A stretch of 64,000 nucleotides of DNA from assembly GCA_963971535.1 (NCBI GenBank), contig OZ020588.1, positions 122,468,387-122,532,386 on the forward strand, in the 5' to 3' direction. Source of the stretch: Notolepis coatsorum (taxonomy: Eukaryota; Chordata; Actinopteri; Aulopiformes; Paralepididae). A program made the translations under genes and the position numbers. Below are positions 30,027 to 62,511 of the stretch, piece by piece. Numbering within the stretch: position 1 is the first letter of the stretch; the number at the start of each line of letters is the position of its first letter. Under the pieces are notes generated by a model that worked only from the letters and a program-made list of their open reading frames with translations, did no database searches and was not told the DNA's origin.

Positions 30027-30474
30027 AATCAAACCAATAACACACGCTCACGCGGAGGTGCGCTGTTGTAAGTGAGCGTGGGTTATTGAATTGATTGATT
30101 GAAAATGTTATTAATGTCCGCCTTGTTTCGAACTGGTTAAGAACTGTTAAGAACTTCATTATTAGATGCTTCTATAGAAAGTAGGTACAAAAAAAATAAA
30201 TACGTTTTATTTGCCCTATAGGTGGCAAATCTTTTTTTTTAACCTACTTTCTATAGAAGCAGCTGGGAGGTGCGCTGTTTTAAGTGAGCGTGGGTTACGG
30301 AATTGATTGATTGATTGATTGAAATTTGTATTAATGTCCACCTTGTTTCAAACTGGTTAGGCTTAGGCTCTCTTTCGAAGTCGGTTATGCTTAGAGTTTA
30401 TCTTTAGAGCAGGGCGATAGACCACCAGCCCTGATTCCAAACTCTAAGCATAACCAACTTCGAAAGAGGGTGAC
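30027..30474. repeat. Left arm of a palindromic repeat split by the BEL element
   Basis: Contains two inverted modules with GTGAGCGTGGGTTA, TTTCTATAGAAG and CGAAAGAGGG. The same modules occur inverted at 37387-37740 on the other side of the BEL/Pao element. The internal palindrome AACCTACTTTCTATAGAAGC/GCTTCTATAGAAAGTAGGT is conserved on both sides. Confidence 0.75.
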
Positions 30475-31001
30475 TGTAACTGCAGCCGTGTCATAGTGTA
30501 ATTCCAGTTAAGCTTCAGTGTGATTACATAGTAGTACCGGTTAGAACAGGCTAGAACGTTCTGGAACGTTGTGATGTCATAGCGGTGAGGTCATAGCAGA
30601 ACCCTTCCAGAACTTCTCGCCAGAGTGTATAAATAGAGAGACGCTACAAGGTATGACCGTTCACTCCTCCACGACCATCAGACAAGACACATCGACACCA
30701 AAGCTCCTAACTTTCCTCTCATATTGCATGCAGTCAACAAGGTACGTTTGGGGCCGTAATGTGCTTGTAGGTTAAGTTCAGTGGGTTATACAACCAACCT
30801 TGCAAAGACCGGTGCCACTCCTATACAAGTAGAGATAATATGTACGTATGTTGTTATGGTTTGATCAGTGATTTATTGTATTTCATGTATGTTTTCACAG
30901 TTTTACGGTTCGGAATAAAGATGTTCTCTTCGAACGGAAATAAAGCCAATCAGTAAAGATCAAAGACGGGTTGCATCATCATTGCAAGAGAGGTAGTTAC
31001 A
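30475..31001 (+). repeat. 5' LTR of the BEL element
   Basis: Contains a TATA box TATAAATAG (30630-30638) and a consensus splice donor AAG|GTACGT after CAGTCAACAAG at about 30740. Repeated GAACGTTCTGGAACGTT words lie in U3. Confidence 0.9.
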
Positions 31002-31140
31002 GTAAAACTTGATGCACCACGATGGCTCTTCAGTAGCAGCCCTACAGTAAGTCTAGAACATTACCGCTGCCACAACATTCTGGAACGTTCCGGATGAAGT
31101 CATAGCGGAACATTCTAGAACATCCTGGCATTACAGCAAG

Positions 31141-32361
31141 ATGTCTGATGGTGGCAGCCATTCCGGGACGGTGGTGGAGGAGGAGCCAGCACCCGCGGCG
31201 GAGGGCCAGGACAGGCCCAGAGAGCGCAAGTTGACGGCCGCGGCTCGGGAGCTGAAGGATGAGCAAAGGACAAAGGTTGCACGGCGGTTCGATAAGTGCA
31301 AGGAAAGATGGCAGAGGGCGATGCGGGAAGCTGAGAACTGGGTGCTGGGTGCCCCGTGCTCATGCAGCGTGCTTGAACACGTCGCTACGGTGGGCGGGGC
31401 CCTTGGTAAGCTGGAGGCGGCCTATGATGCTTGGAAGAGCATTGAAGCGCCTGGGAGTAACGCACGGCGCACCATCAACCACTGCACCCGAGACACAGAG
31501 ATACTTGCAAAGAAACTGTTCGAGGCAACAAAGCCTGGAGATTGCGGGCTGGAGGAAGCAGACGGGATCGAGAGCGGGTCGGTGGCCTCAGACAGGACCG
31601 GCGCCAGCTCCCACCGCTCTAAAGCCTCCTCAGTCAGGACAGGCATCAGCTCTCGCCACAGTAACTCCTCCGCAGCAAGCAGAAGAAGCTCCGCCACTGA
31701 CGTTGAGGCTAGACAAGCCATCGTAGACGGCTTGCTAGCGCAAGAGGAGCACCTTGAAGCAATCCGGAAACTGGTAGCCGAAGAGGCACAGTTAAAGGCA
31801 CAAGTGGATGCCGACAATGCTGAAAGAAAGGCCCAAGTGGATGCTGACAACGTGGAAAGAAAGGCCAGACAAGAGGCCGAAAACGCGGAAAGAAAGGTCA
31901 AACAAGAGGCCAAAAGCGCGGAAAGACAAGGAGCGCTAGAGGCTAAACGCAGAGAAGGAGCGCTAGTGGTAGCCAAGCTCGAGCTACAGGCAGCTCAAGC
32001 AGCCAGCCAACGTGACTACCCAGCTGGAGACAGACCGGCACCACTGCAAGCCCACTCAACCCCAAGGCAGGCACCTCAGAGGGCTCCACGAGAGCAAGAG
32101 GGTCAAAGGCAGGAAGCACTTCAGACACTAGATGCTGAAGCTGCACAAAGAAAAGCCAACGAAGAGGCTGAAACCGCGGAAAGAAAGGTTCAAGCCGCGG
32201 AAAGACAAAGGGTGCTAGAAGCTGCACAGAGAAAGGTTCAGCAGGATGCTGAAACCGCAGAAGAAGAAGAAGAAGAAGAAGAAGAAGAAGAAGAAGAAGA
32301 AGAAGAAGAAGAAGAAGAAGAAGAAGAAGAAGAAGAAGAAGAAGAAGCGATTGGAAACTAG
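31141..32361 (+). pseudogene. gag: BEL/Pao Gag-like protein ending in a poly-Glu expansion
   Basis: The 406-codon open frame starts MSDGGSHSGTVVEEE. It has the basic/hydrophobic N-terminal region of BEL Gag (KLTAAARELKDEQR) and a Ser/Arg-rich segment. A long charged coiled-coil region with repeated KAQVDADNAER and AETAERKV units follows. A (GAA)n tract then encodes about 28 Glu and shifts into a stop. The next frame resumes with a second copy of AAQAASQ-x2-YPAG. The ancestral frame thus probably continued into the protease, and the repeat expansion broke it. No CCHC knuckle is visible. Confidence 0.75.
32262..32346. repeat. (GAA)n microsatellite in gag
   Basis: About 28 GAA units, in frame for Glu in gag and for Lys in the next frame. 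Confidence 0.97.
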
Positions 32362-32364
32362 GAA

Positions 32365-33840
32365 GACGCTAAGGGCTGCCACGGCACGACCGCAAGTATA
32401 CGATCAGCCCAAAGGTGCAGCTCAAGCAGCCAGCCAAAGTGGCTACCCAGCTGGAGAAATAAAGGTGTCGCAAGAGCGAGGCGTCGCTGTGAAAGAGGAA
32501 GTCACGTCTCAGGCAAGCGTAGCGCAGCACCATTTTTCACGGCCAGCTGCAGCACCACCACGGCAACCCCAACTGCAAGCTGCACCACAAGCAAGGCAAG
32601 ACCGGTACCAGGCGCCACTGCCAGCGGAAGCACAACCAAGGCAAAACCAGCAGCGGTCTCCACTGCTAGCGGTAGCAGAAACAAGGCAAGAAGACAGATG
32701 TATCGCACTCCTCGATACACAAAGTGACACAACCTTGATCCGTGAAATGACAGCAAAGGCTCTCAACACAAAGGGTGAACCAGGTCAGCTAAATATCTCG
32801 ACAATAAGTGAAGGGCACGATGTCGGTAGAACACCGATCAAGGAAGTTGTGTTACCTGCAGATGACATAAAGATGCTGGAGCCTGACGTTGCTGACAGAG
32901 CGTCAGAGGCCACCCCCATCCCCCAAGAGGATCTAAGGTTCCAGTCGAAAATGGAACGCATCAAGCAAAGCACAGAGTCTACACAATGGAGGTATGTGGC
33001 TTCGGAAGAGAATCCAGCCGACCATGCCTCAAGAGGTCGCACAGCAGAGCCACTGATAGCCTCTAACTGGGTCACCGGCCCAGACTTGCTTTGGCAGAAA
33101 GGGTTACCAAGTGGAGAAGGCAAGGTGGGAGAGATCGCAAGCGACGACCCTGAACTTAGGAAGGCCCAGGTGCTCACCACACGAGTGAAAGAAGTATGGC
33201 CGCTGCTAGAGCGCGTACACAAGTTCTCAGACTGGTCCAGACTGGTGAAAGCTATCGCCAGACTCCAGCGCCATGTGAAAGAAAGGAAAGGTCACCCGCC
33301 AAAGTCCTGTGAAGCCACCAGTCTAGAGGAAAGGAGAGAAGCAGAGCTAACCATAATCAAGATGGTGCAAGAAGCCACCTTTTCACAAGACATACTGCTA
33401 CTCCAGAGTCACCAGGAGACACCAGTCAAGGGCAGAGCCACTAAGCTGCACCGGTTAGGTCCATTCCTGGATGACCAAGGCGTCCTCAGAGTTGGCCGCC
33501 GCCTAACGCATGCCGCCTTACAGCCACAGGGGATGCATCCAGCGGTCCTTCCAAAGGACAGTCATGTGTCTGGGTTACTCGTCAAGCACTATCATGAGAG
33601 AGTGCACCATCAGGGACGAGGGATGACCATGAATGCACTCCGATCCAATGGCATATGGATACTAGGCTGCAGCAAGGCAGTATCATCCCATATCTACAAG
33701 TGCACTACGTGCAGGAAGGTCAGACGATGCACGGAACAGCAAAGAATGGCAGACCTCCCGGAGGAACGAATGGAAACCGCTCCGCCATTCACCTACTACG
33801 GGATGGAACGCTTTGGACCACGTGGAGAAGGCAAGGTGGG
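32365..33840 (+). pseudogene. pol: BEL/Pao protease, RNase H and integrase zinc-domain remnants
   Basis: Open in the frame that continues to 34114. A retroviral-type protease remnant reads CIALLDTQSDTTLIREMT, with Gln-Ser where Gly is expected, so it is probably inactive. After a large deletion, the end of the RNase H domain is seen in TQWRYVASEENPADHASRG. The integrase N-terminal zinc motif follows, with H-x4-HH and C-x2-C in LVKHYHERVHHQG and YKCTTCRKVRR. It ends at YYGMERFGP, where the catalytic core should begin. The reverse transcriptase is entirely absent. Confidence 0.88.
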
Positions 33841-33844
33841 AGGG

Positions 33845-34075
33845 AGCGGTGTGTCTCTGTCGGCCGTAACGAATGCTCTAGCTGTGGTGGCTATGACGGG
33901 GACAAGAACCCTGGTCCAGGAACCCTGTTCCATGTCAAGGGCACCGGAGCCTCCGGCTCTCTCAAGATCAACCAGGCTGAGGTTAAAGCCAACAAGCCCA
34001 CCAAGAAGCCAGCAGCCAAGAAACCTGTGGAAGCCAAAGGACCCACGAAGGCGGCAACGAAGAAGCCTGCTGCTT
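33845..34075 (+). pseudogene. Linker histone H1-like segment fused within the BEL integrase
   Basis: Translation gives SGVSLSAVTNALA, then GGYDGDKN (after a 1-nt deletion), then GTLFHVKGTGASGSLKIN, then a Lys/Pro/Ala-rich tail (KANKPTKKPAAKKP and similar to KKPAA). These are the H1 globular-domain helix, the G-Y-D-x-x-K-N turn, the K-G-T-G-A-S-G-S wing and the basic tail, in native order. About a dozen residues between KN and GTL are lost. Both edges are in frame with BEL integrase sequence. H1 binds linker DNA on nucleosomes. A host histone gene is unlikely, since start, stop and flanks are all retroelement. Confidence 0.85.
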
Positions 34076-34471
34076 TCTGGGAAAGACAAAGACGCACCAT
34101 CAGAAGGAGCTTGACGGGGCTTGTCTTGACCATCTTCCCATATGAAGTCATAGCGGTTGTAAACAGCAGACCTCTGACCACGGATTGGCTCAATGATTCA
34201 TCTAGTCCAGAGCCCCGGACACCAAGCCACATCCTGACCACGAAGGCCACAATCCTCGCTCCACCTCCTGGACAGTTCGTCAAGGAAGATCGGTACATCG
34301 GCAAAGGATGGCGTCGAGTTCAAATCTTATCCACCCACTGCTGGACAAGATGGAAGAAGAAGCACCTCCTGCACCTCCAACAGAGACAGAAGTGGACCAA
34401 GGATCGTAGGAACGCAAGGGTCGATGACATTGTACTCCTACAGCATGAGTCCACACCACGTAACCAGTGGA
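34076..34471 (+). pseudogene. pol: BEL/Pao integrase C-terminal region, first part
   Basis: It resumes at FWERQRRTIRRSL and includes YEVIAVVNSRPLTTDWLND, PPPGQFVKEDRYIGKGWRR and QQRQKWTKDRRNARVDDIV. These are conserved features following the catalytic Glu in BEL integrases. The frame is open up to the hAT insertion and continues at 35743. Confidence 0.9.
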
Positions 34472-35742
34472 CAGGCCCGGACTGGCCATCGGGAGCACCG
34501 GGAGTTTTCCCGGTGGCCTGGCCTGCACAGATAAAAAAAAAAAAATTATATAAAAAAAAAAATTATATATTTTTTTTATTATAATTTTTTTTAATTTTTT
34601 TTGCCAGGCCATTGTTTCTAGTTGTGGCGGTGGCGTGGCGCGATCATTTTTAGATAACCAGGTGGGTGGGGAACAACCAGGATTTCACTGTCTGCGACAG
34701 AATTGGAGAACTATCTCCCTCACGCGGACACACACACACACACACACACACACAATGGAGCCATGCTGCCGCTTGTGATTGGTGGAGGCGGGACCAGGCA
34801 ATACAACTGATTGACCGTGGAGGCGGCGAATGGAATGGCAGATGGCACACTCCCAAAAGGAGTTGTTAAATCTGACATTACAAAAAACAATATGTGGTGG
34901 TTATGATTGGGGCTGAAGTTGAATAAACAATTTATGAAAGAGAGAGTCAAGATAATTCCAAGATAATTCAAAGATTACACACCTTTGCCACATTGGCTAC
35001 AAACATAATCACTGCAAAGTTATCAAAAAAATAAGAATCTGATCAGACACAAGGGTTAAGTTGTTGTTCCCTTTCTAATTTCCTCAAAAACATCTAGTCT
35101 AGTTAATGTTATCAATATTATTTGACAATTGATGCTTTTTGTTGGAAATTTCAGTCAGTGAGCTCATACTTTGAGCTCATTTTATAGTTAAAATGATTGA
35201 GACAACGCAATCTTCTGTCTTCGTTGTGCATGCATGCGTGTGCTCACCACACGTGATACATGTGTCACTATTCTGGCAGTGGCTACTGTTATTATAGTAT
35301 TGTAATGAAAGGTCTGTTATTTAATGTTTGTGTAAAGGGCTATTTTAACTGTTGATGGGTAGTGCATCAGTAAAGTGAATATGGTATTGTGCTCTTGCCT
35401 TGTTTGAATAGGTGGAGAGAGTGGTTAACTGTATTATAATAGTAAATAGAAAAATATGTTGTGCTCTTGCTTTTTTCTTTTTGAAGGTGGAGAGAGTAGC
35501 ATTGCTAGTGCCACAACAGTTTTATTTGAGGTTCATAACAGTACATTGTACTAAGCAATTGTTGGCTCATTAGTTTGTGATTCACATGCACTAAAATTCA
35601 CCAGAATGCAGGAAATTAAGTCTTTGTAACTAAAATCTTCCGGGTGGGGGACCCCCAGACCCCCCACTTAAAAAGTGGCCTGATTGGGGCTATATTTCGC
35701 GCTATATCTCCCGGTATGAATTATTTCCCCAGTCCGGCCCTG
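34472..35742. mobile_element. hAT MITE inserted in the BEL integrase gene
   Basis: Ends CAGGCCCGGACTGGCC and (inverted) CAGGGCCGGACTGGGG. An 8-bp duplication CCAGTGGA lies at 34464-34471 and 35743-35750. It contains an AT-rich hairpin (34531-34605), a (CA)n run at 34730-34754 and a segment shared with 51800-52260. No transposase is present. Confidence 0.9.
34868..35345 (+). repeat. Segment shared with the CACTA element (inverted at ~51800-52260)
   Basis: Shared words include ATATGTGGTGGTTATGAT, TCAGACACAAGGGTTAA, CTAGTCTAGTTAATGT and GTGAGCTCATACTTTGAGC. It includes one half of the TTAA MITE described at 52077-52441. Confidence 0.75.
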
Positions 35743-35917
35743 CCAGTGGAGGATGGCGAAGGTTATGGAGGTGTACCCAGGGAAAGATGGGAGAGTGCGA
35801 AGCCTTAAGTTGCTTATCAGCGACCCCAACCTTGATAAGAAAGGAAAGCACATCTCCACACCAGTCGTCCTGGAGAGGCCCATCCATAAGACGGTGACGC
35901 TGGTGGAAGCAGAATGA
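35743..35917 (+). pseudogene. pol: BEL/Pao integrase C-terminal region, second part
   Basis: Continues the integrase frame after the hAT MITE with MAKVMEVYPGKDGRVRSLKL and PVVLERPIHKTVTLVEAE, ending at TGA 35915-35917. This is the standard end of BEL/Pao polyproteins. Confidence 0.9.
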
Positions 35918-36103
35918 CGTCTCCTGCGCCCTCTAGCTTTCTCTATATCTCTATCATTCTATCTTTTTCTCTCCCTCCAGGCGAAGGCTGAGGTGATTCG
36001 TCATGTGGAGGCCAAGGACCGTAGTTATTGCTTTACGTTTTAGGCATTATGTGGGCAGTTATCGTCTCTAAGTTATTGTAAGAATCATATACAATGCTTA
36101 TAT

Positions 36104-36619
36104 ATGCTTGGTGGGAGTGTAAGAGTAGAACTCAGAGAGAAGATAAAGAAAGGAGTTGAGGCGGAGTGGCAGGCTGAGTGGGAAAGGGGGACCAAGGGAA
36201 GGCACTATTTCTCTCTGCAGCCTTGGGTCAAAATCAAGGTGGATGGATATGGGTCGAGGAGTGATAGGGTGAAGATGTGTAGATTGAGGCTGGGACACTG
36301 TGGGTTGAACAGTACCTTGTGCATTGTGGGAAAACATCCAGATGGGGGGTGTGAATGTGGAGAGACTGAAACTGTCGGGCATGTCTTCCTAAAATGTGAA
36401 AGGTATAGGAAAGAGAGGGAAATCTTCTATAAAAGTCTGGTAGAGTTGGGAGTCTCTTCCTTCTCTCTTAAATCTTTCTTTGGCATGGATAATGAGAACC
36501 ACCAGCTGATCAGAGGCAGTGCTGACATTTCTGTATGCTTCAGAGTTGTACCAGAGGATATAGCATTATTGTATTTATTAGTATTGGACAGGCAAGAGGA
36601 GCAGAGAAGAAGGAGATAG
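36104..36619 (+). pseudogene. LINE ORF2 C-terminal domain (RNase-H-type LINE)
   Basis: The 171-codon frame contains KMCRLRLGHCGLNSTLCIVG, CECGETETVGHVFLKCERY and a Glu/Arg-rich end. The R-L-R-x-G-H, C-x-C-G-x-x-E-T-x-x-H-x-x-x-x-C pattern marks the C-terminal domain of LINEs carrying RNase H (I/jockey-like). The catalytic domains are missing. Confidence 0.8.
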
Positions 36620-36873
36620 TGTGTTTTGAAGATGAGAAGAAGAAGAGGGTAAACAATCAAAAGTTGGTTTACCAGAGGCCTAACTATGGCACACCACTAG
36701 CGTAGTATAAGAACTGAGGAGGGCAGTAATACACCTGCGGGAAATTCAAAAGAAGAAAGAAGAAGAAGAAGAAGAAGAAGAGCTCATCAAAAGAATTGCG
36801 GAGGGCAGTAATACGCCACGATGTGTCTACACTGCCGGAAATTCTAAAGAAGAAGAAGAAGAAGAAGAAGAAG
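36104..36873 (+). mobile_element. LINE 3' end with Cys-rich C-terminus and (GAA)n tails
   Basis: The coding remnant 36104-36619 is followed by two tandem 3' ends (GAGGGCAGTAATAC, GAAATTC), each finished by (GAA)n (36763-36780 and 36849-36873). The second tail runs straight into the 3' LTR at 36874 and replaces its first bases. Confidence 0.75.
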
Positions 36874-37386
36874 AACTGCAGCCGTGTCATAGTGTAATTC
36901 CAGTTAAGCTTCAGTGTGATGTCATAGTAGAACCGGTTAGAACGTTCTGGAACGTTGTGATGTCATAGTGGTTAGGTCATAGCAGGACCTTCCAGAACTT
37001 CTCGCCAGAGTGTATAAATAGAGAGACGCTACAAGGTTCGACCGTTCACTCCTCCATGACCATCAGACAAGACACATCGACACCAAAGCTCCTAACTTTC
37101 CTCTCATATTGCATGCAGTCAACAAGGTACGTTTGGGGCCGTAATGTGCTTGTAGGTTAAGTTCAGTGGGTTATACAACCAACCTTGCAAAGACCGGTGC
37201 CACTCCTATACAAGTAGAGATAATATGTACGTATGTTGTTATGGTTTGATCAGTGATTTATTGTATTTCATGTATGTTTTCACAGTTTTACGGTTCGGAA
37301 TAAAGATGTTCTCTTCGAACGGAAATAAAGCCAATCAGTAAAGATCAAAGACGGGTTGCGTCATCATTGCAAGAGAGGTAGTTACA
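36874..37386 (+). repeat. 3' LTR of the BEL element (first bases lost)
   Basis: Matches the 5' LTR from AACTGCAGCCGTG to GTTACA. It lacks the initial TGT and a 10-bp block present in the 5' copy. Confidence 0.9.
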
Positions 37387-37391
37387 GTGAC

Positions 37392-37740
37392 TTTGAAAGA
37401 GGGCGACTTCGAAAGAGGGCCTAAGCCTAACCAGTTTGAAATAAGGCGGACATTAATAAAATGTCCAATCAATCAATTCAATAACCCACGCTCACTTAAA
37501 ACAGAGCACCTCCCAGCTGCTTCTATAGAAAGTAGGTCCAAAAAAAAATGTGCCTCCTATAGGGCAAATAAATATATATATATTTTATTGAACCTACTTT
37601 CAATAGAAGCATCTAAGAATGAAGTTCTTAACAGTTCTTAACCAGTTCGAAACAAGGCGGACATTAATAAAATTTGCAATCAATCAAACCAATAACCCAC
37701 GCTCACTGCATTCTTGCCTTGAAACAGTGCACCTCCGAGC
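37392..37740. repeat. Right arm of the palindromic repeat flanking the BEL element
   Basis: Inverted relative of 30027-30474, with CGAAAGAGGGC, CCCACGCTCACTTAAAACA, and CTTCTATAGAAAGTAGGT. Confidence 0.75.
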
Positions 37741-60356: not shown

Positions 60357-62396
60357 TTATGCTGTTAAATGAAGTAGTGGTATTGCAATGGCACCATCTC
60401 CGTCTGGAGAGAGAAGACATTTGCGCTTGATATAGCGAAGTTTACCTATCCCTATATCTTCTTGCAAGCCACTGACCTTGTATGTACCAATGTATGATGA
60501 TTCACAGGGATACATGTAGTATGGCTGTTTGTGTCTGTACTTTCTGTAAATTATATATACCTCTTCCTCTGATTTAAGAATATTCTCTACTAATGCAAAT
60601 CCATCTCCAACCTCAATACAATTGTCTCCTTTCTTTGTGGACAAAGTAAACCGATGAGTGGAGACCTTCCTGTACTGTTGTGAAGAAGTAAACTGTGGGG
60701 GGACAGGCCCATCAGTGTGAATATTACGCAAAATTGGATCATCAGTGGGACATGGGGATCCAACATCTGGAATTTCAGACAACCTTTTCACTACCTGTTG
60801 TAGAGGCTGATGTGGCTTGCGTAGAAGATGCTTAATTTGTCCAAGATAGTTCTCAAAAGGGAATCCTGAGATATTATCTAGAGTGCCAAACTTCCTGTAT
60901 TCCTCAGCCAAATGAATAAGCTGGTGTACATTGTACACAATTTCACCTCTTCCATACACTGTCCCAAAGTGTTCAACAAAAGAAACCATCAACTTGTGCG
61001 CAAAGGCCAACATTTCCTCAGAAATACTAGGGGACAGCAACAAGTACATTCCAACAGAAAACAACATGAAGTTGTCATACAGCTCACTGGGGAGGGAATC
61101 CTTCAAAACAACAGGACCCCAATACAACATGAAGGATCGCAACTCAGTAGCTTTCCAGCAATCTAACTCTGACAGTTCCCTTGGTTTACGGTTAAATTCA
61201 CAAGGCATGTAGGGACGTAGCTTTAGCAGTTTACCTGAAATGGCTTGTACAGTTTTGGAAGGGACCCTTGTTGCCAAATTCTTCCCCTTTAACCATATAT
61301 TAAGCAGTTTCCTTGTAACTCCGAGACAACAGAGATGCATGTAATCAGTTGGAAACATAGAAACCATCTTAACTAAACCTGTTAAAGGGCTCGTCCCATT
61401 GTGATGTGCCTCATCAACCATGTCTGAGAAACTGGAGTCTGTCCTAAGTCTGACTTTTGTTTCAGGATATGTCATTTTATTTCTCCATACACCCTCCTGA
61501 AAACACTTGTCACAACCAGAATAGCCATTAAATGCCTTGGTCTGCTTAATATAAGCTCTAGCCGGGGCATCACAAATGAAAGAAGAAATCTGTACATCAA
61601 ATTGCTTGTCATTATAAATAATGCCATTAGACAGTACATTCTGAAGATCTTTGACAAACTGCTCTAGGTACTCAAAAACACTCTTTGGCTTGCTTAGACC
61701 ACAAAAAATGCCAACAACAAATGGGGACTTTGTGTAGTCACATTTGAGACTTCCAAGTATGGGCCAAAACTGAAGTTTAGAACTTTTGAATAAAGGTAAA
61801 CCATCTATATTAAACTGTAAATTAAGAGTTGTCAGAGTTGCCGGTAAAATCAAACATGCCAACCGTGAAAGCACCCCTTTGACTAAACCAAAATGATAGT
61901 ATTCTCCCCCTTCAATCTTAGTGGTAGGCACATGTTTTTGTGTTCCTAGCAATGTTCTTCCATCTTTAGGAAGGGTGGGGTGAAACTTCTTCAAAAAGGA
62001 CAGCAAAGATGATAGTGCAACCAGAGAGACTGAATAGGATGTTGCCCAATATTTTAAACTTGTCATGAGGAAATCTTCGTTTTCGTCATCCCCAGCTATA
62101 CTTTCAAAATGTGCATTTGACTCACCTGGTGAGTCAATATTTTCACTTTGATCACTGATAGTTAGTGGTCTGTTTAGTGGCAAGTCTGAAGTTGATAAAT
62201 CTAGTGGCAAGTCTGTCTTTGGTAAATCGAGCAGGCACTCAGTATAGGCTGTGACAGGATCTGTGTTATCTAAAGAGTGATGGTTTGTCCTTGAATTAGC
62301 AGCAACAATTAACTTATAATCAGTGAGGATAGCCTGCTCTGTCTCTCTCACTAATTTGTTGACTCTACGTCTTTTAGCCCGAGAATAAGATGACAT
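60357..62396 (-). CDS. CACTA/EnSpm-type transposase, intact
   Basis: A single 679-codon frame. An in-frame TGA lies 18 nt upstream of the ATG at 62396, fixing the start. The N-terminus is basic (SRAKRRRVNKLVRE). The central region has candidate catalytic residues in NIDGLPLF (Asp about 198), CDAPAR (Asp about 276) and FPTDYMHLCCLGV (Asp about 351), with a C-x2-C pair at 295/298 (SGCDKC). The C-terminal part has NVHQLIHLAEEYRKFG and FPFENYLGQIKHLLRKP, resembling the DUF4218 region of CACTA transposases. It would cut the CCCAG ends. The classification comes from motif recognition, not a search. Confidence 0.85.
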   Translation of the reverse strand: MSSYSRAKRRRVNKLVRETEQAILTDYKLIVAANSRTNHHSLDNTDPVTAYTECLLDLPKTDLPLDLSTSDLPLNRPLTISDQSENIDSPGESNAHFESIAGDDENEDFLMTSLKYWATSYSVSLVALSSLLSFLKKFHPTLPKDGRTLLGTQKHVPTTKIEGGEYYHFGLVKGVLSRLACLILPATLTTLNLQFNIDGLPLFKSSKLQFWPILGSLKCDYTKSPFVVGIFCGLSKPKSVFEYLEQFVKDLQNVLSNGIIYNDKQFDVQISSFICDAPARAYIKQTKAFNGYSGCDKCFQEGVWRNKMTYPETKVRLRTDSSFSDMVDEAHHNGTSPLTGLVKMVSMFPTDYMHLCCLGVTRKLLNIWLKGKNLATRVPSKTVQAISGKLLKLRPYMPCEFNRKPRELSELDCWKATELRSFMLYWGPVVLKDSLPSELYDNFMLFSVGMYLLLSPSISEEMLAFAHKLMVSFVEHFGTVYGRGEIVYNVHQLIHLAEEYRKFGTLDNISGFPFENYLGQIKHLLRKPHQPLQQVVKRLSEIPDVGSPCPTDDPILRNIHTDGPVPPQFTSSQQYRKVSTHRFTLSTKKGDNCIEVGDGFALVENILKSEEEVYIIYRKYRHKQPYYMYPCESSYIGTYKVSGLQEDIGIGKLRYIKRKCLLSPDGDGAIAIPLLHLTA

Positions 62397-62511
62397 AGTG
62401 ATGAGGTGCTGTAGTCAATGTAATGGTACATACATTGTGCTATTTACTTGGCTAGAACAGGTCTTTGCTTCAATTGCTGCAACGTGCGGCTTCTTGAAAC
62501 TGGTACGTGAT

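What the first reader, a model, noticed from the sequence alone, without database searches (positions are those of the whole stretch)
33822..34090. Histone H1 fragment in frame in place of the BEL/Pao integrase core
Between the integrase zinc-domain end (YYGMERFGP) and the post-catalytic region (FWERQRRTIR) lies a linker histone H1 sequence. It has the GVSLSA helix, the GGYDxDKN turn, the VKGTGASGS wing and a Lys/Pro/Ala tail, in native order. Both junctions are in the reading frame of the retroelement, and the D-D-E core is absent. This looks like capture of a host H1 transcript by template switching, giving a chimeric chromatin-binding protein. I know of no described retrotransposon of this kind.
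Basis: partly seen in the sequence, partly recalled or inferred. Interest (0 to 1): 0.92.

Follow-up and report, generated by a model that had tools for sequence, protein, structure and literature searches.

The report
Retrotransposon family carrying captured histone H1
In this vertebrate-like genome a defective jumping element swallowed a piece of the host's own histone H1 gene, replaced its integration enzyme's core with it, and then spread to dozens of places; a second, unrelated jumping element in the same genome did something similar.

Summary
Window 33843-34073 matches a host histone H1 coding sequence (blastn E 2.6e-48) inside a BEL/Pao element with LTRs and a 5-bp target duplication, where relatives have the integrase core. 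In the window copy the frame breaks inside the H1 piece; 14 H1 residues are missing.
It is not a one-off. The host genome holds at least 40 copies on 15 contigs; 20 of 40 have one open frame from the RNase H linker through H1 into DUF5641. Six older-looking copies lack the zinc domain and have H1 beside the RNase H/integrase linker. The window type regained a zinc domain by recombination, leaving a 22-nt relic. Reverse transcriptase is deleted at one joint shared by 13 of 14 copies examined, so the family is non-autonomous.
Indels inherited by dispersed copies keep the frame (5 of 5, versus 10 of 26 others, p=0.018), but the H1 protein drifts.
A second, Ty3-like family here carries an intact H1 domain before Gag, in one frame in 6 of 9 loci.

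The parts
30470..30474 (+). 5-bp target site duplication GTGAC, left
30475..31001 (+). 5' LTR, TGTAACT...AGTTACA
   Evidence: family hits in the genome
31057..32361 (+). Gag-like open frame (named by position only; no Pfam hit)
32705..32809 (+). protease remnant (35 aa, 66% to P0037; named by its DTQS motif, recalled)
32918..32953 (+). in-frame deletion joint: reverse transcriptase and most of RNase H missing
33062..33137 (+). RNase H/integrase linker (LPSGEGKVGEI..), the original BEL partner of the H1 joint
33575..33724 (+). integrase zinc-binding domain (PF17921, E 7e-4, below cut-off)
33817..33820 (+). 4-nt ACCA shared by zinc-domain end and older H1-bearing type: joint of the second recombination
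33821..33842 (+). 22-nt relic of the first BEL-H1 joint
33843..34073 (+). captured histone H1 piece (helix 2, wing, basic tail)
33906..33929 (+). deletion joint inside H1 (14 residues lost), with a short tandem duplication
34074..34079 (+). 3' joint of H1 to the post-core integrase
34306..34473 (+). integrase C-terminal region, DUF5641 (PF18701, E 1e-13), first part
34472..35742 (+). nested hAT-like insertion with 8-bp target duplication CCAGTGGA (34464-34471, 35743-35750)
35744..35914 (+). end of integrase C-terminal region
36874..37386 (+). 3' LTR (10 mismatches in 513 aligned positions to the 5' LTR; lacks its first three bases)
37387..37391 (+). 5-bp target site duplication GTGAC, right

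Best explanation
A non-autonomous BEL/Pao LTR-retrotransposon family that captured a piece of a host histone H1 transcript once, lost reverse transcriptase and the integrase core, and spread using enzymes of autonomous BEL elements. Step 1 (shown by old-looking copies): H1 lies between the RNase H/integrase linker and the post-core integrase, in place of zinc domain and catalytic core. Step 2 (shown by joints): a switch between such a sequence and a complete BEL sequence at a 4-nt match gave back the zinc domain and left a 22-nt relic; this type amplified. That the joints were made by reverse transcriptase during copying, and that helpers supplied the enzymes, is inferred. The reading frame through H1 was kept while the family spread (supported by a small test), so the chimeric polyprotein was probably translated (inferred); the H1 part itself is most likely a tolerated spacer or weakly useful basic segment rather than a working linker histone (inferred).
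For: 40 copies scored of 230 candidates, on 15 contigs, 36 matching the whole 269 nt. Three copies have their own target duplications: GTGAC, AATGG and AGCAT. The BEL-H1 copies form one group against 8 host H1 genes (37 of 37 tips, support 0.85). Donor type: 4 of 120 nt differ between copy L038 and host H1 L047. Six copies (L030, L033, L035, L037, L038, L039) have no zinc domain and H1 beside the linker; in five the joint reads alike, in L039 a short deletion has removed it. 32 of 40 carry the zinc-end joint. The RT deletion joint is shared by old and young copies, 13 of 14 examined. Shared dispersed indels in frame 5 of 5, others 10 of 26. BEL integrase copies with open frames above 2000 residues exist in the genome, and an LTR of this family (92%) lies beside one BEL integrase copy at C6:168896809.
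Against: The RT route is inferred: the first 5' joint shows no clear microhomology and the 3' joint has two unexplained letters, which end-joining of DNA would also give. Use of helper enzymes was not observed. The indel test is post hoc, small and grouped by hand. pN/pS in H1 is 0.75 over 39 copies, so frame maintenance is not matched by strong protein constraint. L034 and L036 are truncated before the joint, L040 is partial, L038 has another joint at the RT deletion.
Confidence: 0.82

Rival explanations
1. The H1 piece is functional: its basic tail and wing tether the element's polyprotein or particle to chromatin or nucleic acid, and this favoured its spread.
For: Frame kept in inherited indels; no stop in the H1 segment of 39 copies, the frame-broken ones read in alignment columns; 12-16 Lys+Arg against 3-4 Asp+Glu in the ten copies counted; a second family in the same genome carries an intact H1 domain before Gag, with dN/dS 0.32 among 9 copies.
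Against: pN/pS 0.75 overall and 0.89 in young copies; mean nonsynonymous differences from donor-type host H1 over about 120 nt grow from 3.3 (old) to 7.1 (young) while synonymous ones do not; 14 residues lost; about 2 stops were expected by chance, so none seen is not significant.
Confidence: 0.2
2. The H1 piece entered a BEL copy as DNA (retrocopy or gene fragment joined during break repair) and was amplified afterwards.
For: The first 5' joint lacks clear microhomology and the 3' one carries two extra letters.
Against: The second joint and the deletion inside H1 sit at 4-nt matches; both ends of the H1 piece lie in H1 coding sequence, and no non-coding histone-gene sequence was seen at the joints looked at.
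Confidence: 0.15
3. Assembly error or chance resemblance.
For: Pfam score of the window piece alone is below cut-off.
Against: E 2.6e-48 to a host H1 gene; 40 copies on 15 contigs and three distinct target duplications.
Confidence: 0.01

Closest known systems
LTR-mediated retroposition (Tan et al. 2016; not held; known only as described in passages of PMC5408686)
   Same: Host mRNA joined into LTR-element cDNA by template switching, ending up between LTRs.
   Different: Here the host piece sits inside pol, the chimera itself became a multicopy family, and a second recombination rebuilt part of it.
Maize Bs1 element (passages of PMC5408686)
   Same: LTR element carrying pieces of cellular genes.
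   Different: Plant element, other genes; here a linker histone in a BEL/Pao element of an animal genome, with an older and a younger structural type.
Non-autonomous LTR elements that keep Gag but lack RT (TR-GAG/LARD type; recalled)
   Same: No RT, kept Gag-like frame, probable use of a helper.
   Different: Carries a captured host protein piece, in frame in many copies.
Chromoviruses, Ty3 elements with a chromodomain on integrase (recalled)
   Same: Chromatin-related sequence in the integrase region.
   Different: There the integrase is active and the domain old; here the core is gone and the H1 piece is a recent, partial capture.

Membership tests
BEL/Pao LTR retrotransposon | LTRs with 5-bp target duplication | tested here: met
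   window; two further copies
BEL/Pao LTR retrotransposon | pol related to BEL pol with DUF5641 | tested here: met
   PF18701 E 1e-13; 76% and 62% to the two sides of P0003, a Gadus morhua protein with integrase core and DUF5641
BEL/Pao LTR retrotransposon | own reverse transcriptase and integrase core | tested here: not met
   deletion joint; core replaced; hence a non-autonomous derivative
Linker histone H1 | complete winged-helix globular domain | tested here: not met
   14 residues missing; PF00538 below cut-off
Linker histone H1 | common descent with host H1 | tested here: met
LTR-mediated host gene capture by template switching | host sequence between LTRs, joints at microsimilarity, target duplication | tested here: inconclusive
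   LTRs and target duplications met; microhomology at the later joints only
Non-autonomous element mobilised in trans | helper with shared LTR | tested here: inconclusive
   LTR of this family at 92% beside one BEL integrase copy; mobilisation itself not testable here

The most novel reading that the evidence does not exclude
Linker histone H1 has been taken up independently by two LTR-retrotransposon lineages of one genome, once into BEL pol and once as an intact domain on a Ty3-like Gag, because an H1 domain helps the element's particle or DNA to bind host chromatin or condense nucleic acid; the Gag version would be a selected H1-Gag chimera.
Probability: 0.25. Interest if true: 0.9.

Novelty: new variant of a known kind. 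Interest (0 to 1): 0.7.

Why it matters
Host-gene capture by LTR elements is mostly known from isolated copies (recalled). Here older and younger joints survive side by side, so capture, recombination with a complete element and amplification can be ordered, and host H1 genes are present for comparison. Two apparently separate captures of the same host protein in one genome raise a testable question: are abundant histone mRNAs simply packaged often, or is an H1 domain useful to a retrotransposon?

Tried and rejected
Chance and assembly error: rejected. The 22-nt repeat as locally copied filler: first idea, replaced when older-looking copies showed it to be the original linker-H1 joint. Strong purifying selection on the BEL H1 piece: not supported. 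H1 of the BEL family coming from the H1-Gag family: not favoured, because its tail continues along another host H1 type and the nearest of 18 host genes compared differ. Absence of stops as evidence for selection: about 2 expected, not significant. PDB and Pfam searches with the window piece were too weak to decide. Exact 33-base 3' joint in viral contigs: 0 matches; distant DNA search in plasmids: no match. Protein searches listed 24, 7 and 120 of 175 hits (148 distinct), none listed with both an H1 and a BEL domain; blastp of the 14 H1 proteins against the 134 others gave none at E 0.01. In one search the printed positions are wrong by a script slip; only its lengths and motif flags are used. 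H1-Gag copies were found by their H1 score, so the 0.32 dN/dS is biased towards conserved copies; an unbiased search by Gag did not complete.

Full report
What is in the window. A BEL/Pao element runs from 30475 to 37386, with LTRs of 527 and 513 bases (10 mismatches in 513 aligned positions, 3 gap runs) and the 5-bp target duplication GTGAC on both sides. It has a Gag-like frame (named by position; no Pfam hit), a protease remnant, a deletion joint where relatives have reverse transcriptase, a weak integrase zinc domain (E 7e-4, below cut-off), and DUF5641 (E 1e-13). A hAT-like element with an 8-bp duplication is nested in the DUF5641 region. Between zinc domain and DUF5641 lies H1 sequence: host H1 coding sequence L047 aligns to 33843-34073 at E 2.6e-48, 183 bits, against at most 31 bits in 100 shuffled windows.

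GVSLSA and the upstream zinc domain share one frame; GGYDGDKN, the tail and DUF5641 share another, so this copy cannot make the chimera in one frame. The first bases named as H1 (33822-33842) are BEL, not H1. Fourteen H1 residues are missing; that they make up helix 3 is recalled from H1 structures. Of the D-D-E triad, one glutamate (WER) remains; the catalytic assignment is recalled.

It is a family. A search of the own genome (3.42 Gb, 4787 contigs) with the 269 bases of the finding scored 40 of 230 candidates; the 40 lie on 15 contigs, 36 of them matching the full 269 bases. These are lower bounds. I fetched stretches around all 40. Of 39 with a usable H1 segment, 29 have 259 bases, one more than the window copy (258); frame-breaking indels within the segment were seen in three (L001, which is the window copy, L029, L039), not counting end effects of the alignment and the 5' truncations of L034 and L036; no stop was seen in the segment of any, the frame-broken ones being read in alignment columns. 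In the DUF5641 segment stops were seen in 3 of 32 copies (L013, L028, L029). An open frame spans RNase H linker, H1 and DUF5641 motifs in 20 of 40, and H1 to DUF5641 in 32 of 40 (motif flags only). Three copies have separate target duplications: window GTGAC, C1 AATGG, C30 AGCAT; in a fourth (C6) the 3' LTR end is lost. LTR divergence is 1.9% (window), 5 of 525 (C1) and 9 of 506 (C6), so insertions are recent; no rate for this species is known to me.

Two structural types give the history. Six copies (L030, L033, L035, L037, L038, L039) have H1 beside the RNase H/integrase linker, without any zinc domain; in five the joint reads KVG|GS or alike, in L039 a short deletion has removed it. In 32 of 40 the zinc-domain end (FGP) precedes, followed by a short stretch of that linker and then H1; two (L034, L036) are truncated before the joint. 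The window's 22-base relic is thus the first joint. The second joint lies at ACCA, present both at the zinc-domain end and in the L030/L035 kind of older-looking copy. 'Older' rests on sequence divergence, not on LTR dating. The H1 tree puts all BEL copies used together (37 of 37 tips, 0.85) and the young type beside the middle-aged copies; two zinc-bearing copies (L031, L032) fall with the older ones, so the young type is not a clean clade there (L029, L039 and the partial L040 left out; 8 host genes used). The reverse-transcriptase deletion joint was looked at in 14 copies (L001-L008 and the six without zinc domain): 13 share it, L038 has another joint there.

Donor and helper. PF00538 scored 150 of 244 candidates in the genome, mostly in large histone clusters; 20 of these loci were cut out. 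Copy L038 differs at 4 of 120 compared bases from host H1 L047, the nearest of 18 host genes compared. BEL integrases are very common (126 scored of 28,589 candidates, several in open frames above 2000 residues), and an LTR of this family (92%, positions 1-485) begins 193 bases beyond the end of one integrase match. That such elements supply enzymes in trans is inference.

Is the H1 part used? For: indels inherited by dispersed copies are all multiples of three (5 of 5: 126, -534, 3, -3, -3), against 10 of 26 that are private or confined to a local cluster (one-sided Fisher p=0.018; 31 copies of the zinc-bearing type compared with L023; grouping done by hand; one of the five is shared by two copies on the same contig 3.6 Mb apart). 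Against: pN/pS in H1 is 0.75 over 39 copies, 0.89 among 30 young ones, 0.64 for shared and 0.80 for single variants; DUF5641 gives 0.78 over 32 copies, 0.53 among 27 young ones, 0.86 for shared and 0.63 for single variants. Against donor-type host H1, mean nonsynonymous differences rise from 3.3 (old) through 5.9 to 7.1 (young) over about 120 bases, with synonymous ones flat at 4.9, 4.9 and 4.3; these host genes among themselves give dN/dS 0.02. So the frame seems to have mattered while the family spread, but the H1 sequence did not matter much.

A second H1 family. Of ten further loci fetched with PF00538 hits, nine (L061-L068, L070; not L069) carry near-complete H1 with an intact globular domain just upstream of a Gag-like sequence; a start methionine of H1 is seen in 8 of 9 (not L064), and one open frame runs from H1 into Gag in 6 of 9 (broken in L066, L067, L068). 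In L065 the domain scores E 1e-21 in a 909-residue open frame that also has an integrase core (E 5e-12) and a sub-threshold protease hit, with too little room for reverse transcriptase ('Ty3-like' is my inference from this order). A 152-153-base LTR pair was found in 4 of 9 stretches (L062, L063, L065, L068), and 4 of these 4 have their own 5-bp duplications. Among nine copies H1 dN/dS is 0.32 and Gag 0.42, but the copies were chosen by H1 score. The nearest host H1 genes differ from that of the BEL piece, so I read it as a separate capture.

Comparison with print. I saw passages of PMC5408686 and PMC8232201, which describe LTR-mediated retroposition by template switching and Bs1; Tan et al. 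2016 was not held. Searches of the open library for H1, linker histone, BEL/Pao, capture and retrotransposon terms (I saw titles and starts of abstracts, only 15 of 1,367 and only 12 of 51 papers; plus passages of PMC3537659, unrelated) showed me no H1-bearing retrotransposon. Most subscription papers are not in that library.

Limits. Other eukaryotic genomes could not be searched as DNA here. Only the best candidates were scored in each genome search.

Noticed in passing
L061-L068, L070 (own genome: C1:35260057, C27:41080861, C13:101653088, C3169:22177, C24:95174606, C24:130176984, C7:70549095, C23:3259504, C789:85081): Short Ty3-like elements with an intact histone H1 domain just before Gag, in one open frame in 6 of 9 loci; 152-153-base LTR pairs seen in 4 of 9, each of these four with a 5-bp target duplication; RT seems missing in L065.
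   Followed up: partly
window 34464-35750: hAT-like insertion with 8-bp duplication inside the BEL integrase C-terminal region.
   Followed up: partly
window 30054-30468 and 37389-37707: The BEL element sits inside an inverted-repeat structure (longest arm pair 125 nt, 94% complementary), apparently an older mobile element hit by the insertion.
   Followed up: no
window 30475-31001 / 36874-37386: Nine of the ten LTR mismatches lie in the first 200 bases; the rest of the LTR pair has one. This may reflect conversion or recombination between copies.
   Followed up: no
window 36044-36619: Open frame resembling the end of a non-LTR element polyprotein (by eye), between integrase end and 3' LTR.
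   Followed up: no
own genome C9:179-182 Mb, C32, C4:227 Mb, C29:101 Mb, C1:13 Mb: Very large host H1 clusters (150 scored of 244 candidates).
   Followed up: no
L003, L005, L007, L008, L009, L011, L012, L019: A 126-base in-frame duplication in the linker region shared by eight dispersed BEL-H1 copies, a recent sub-family.
   Followed up: partly
window 60357-62414 (-): 685-residue open frame, perhaps a transposase; not searched.
   Followed up: no
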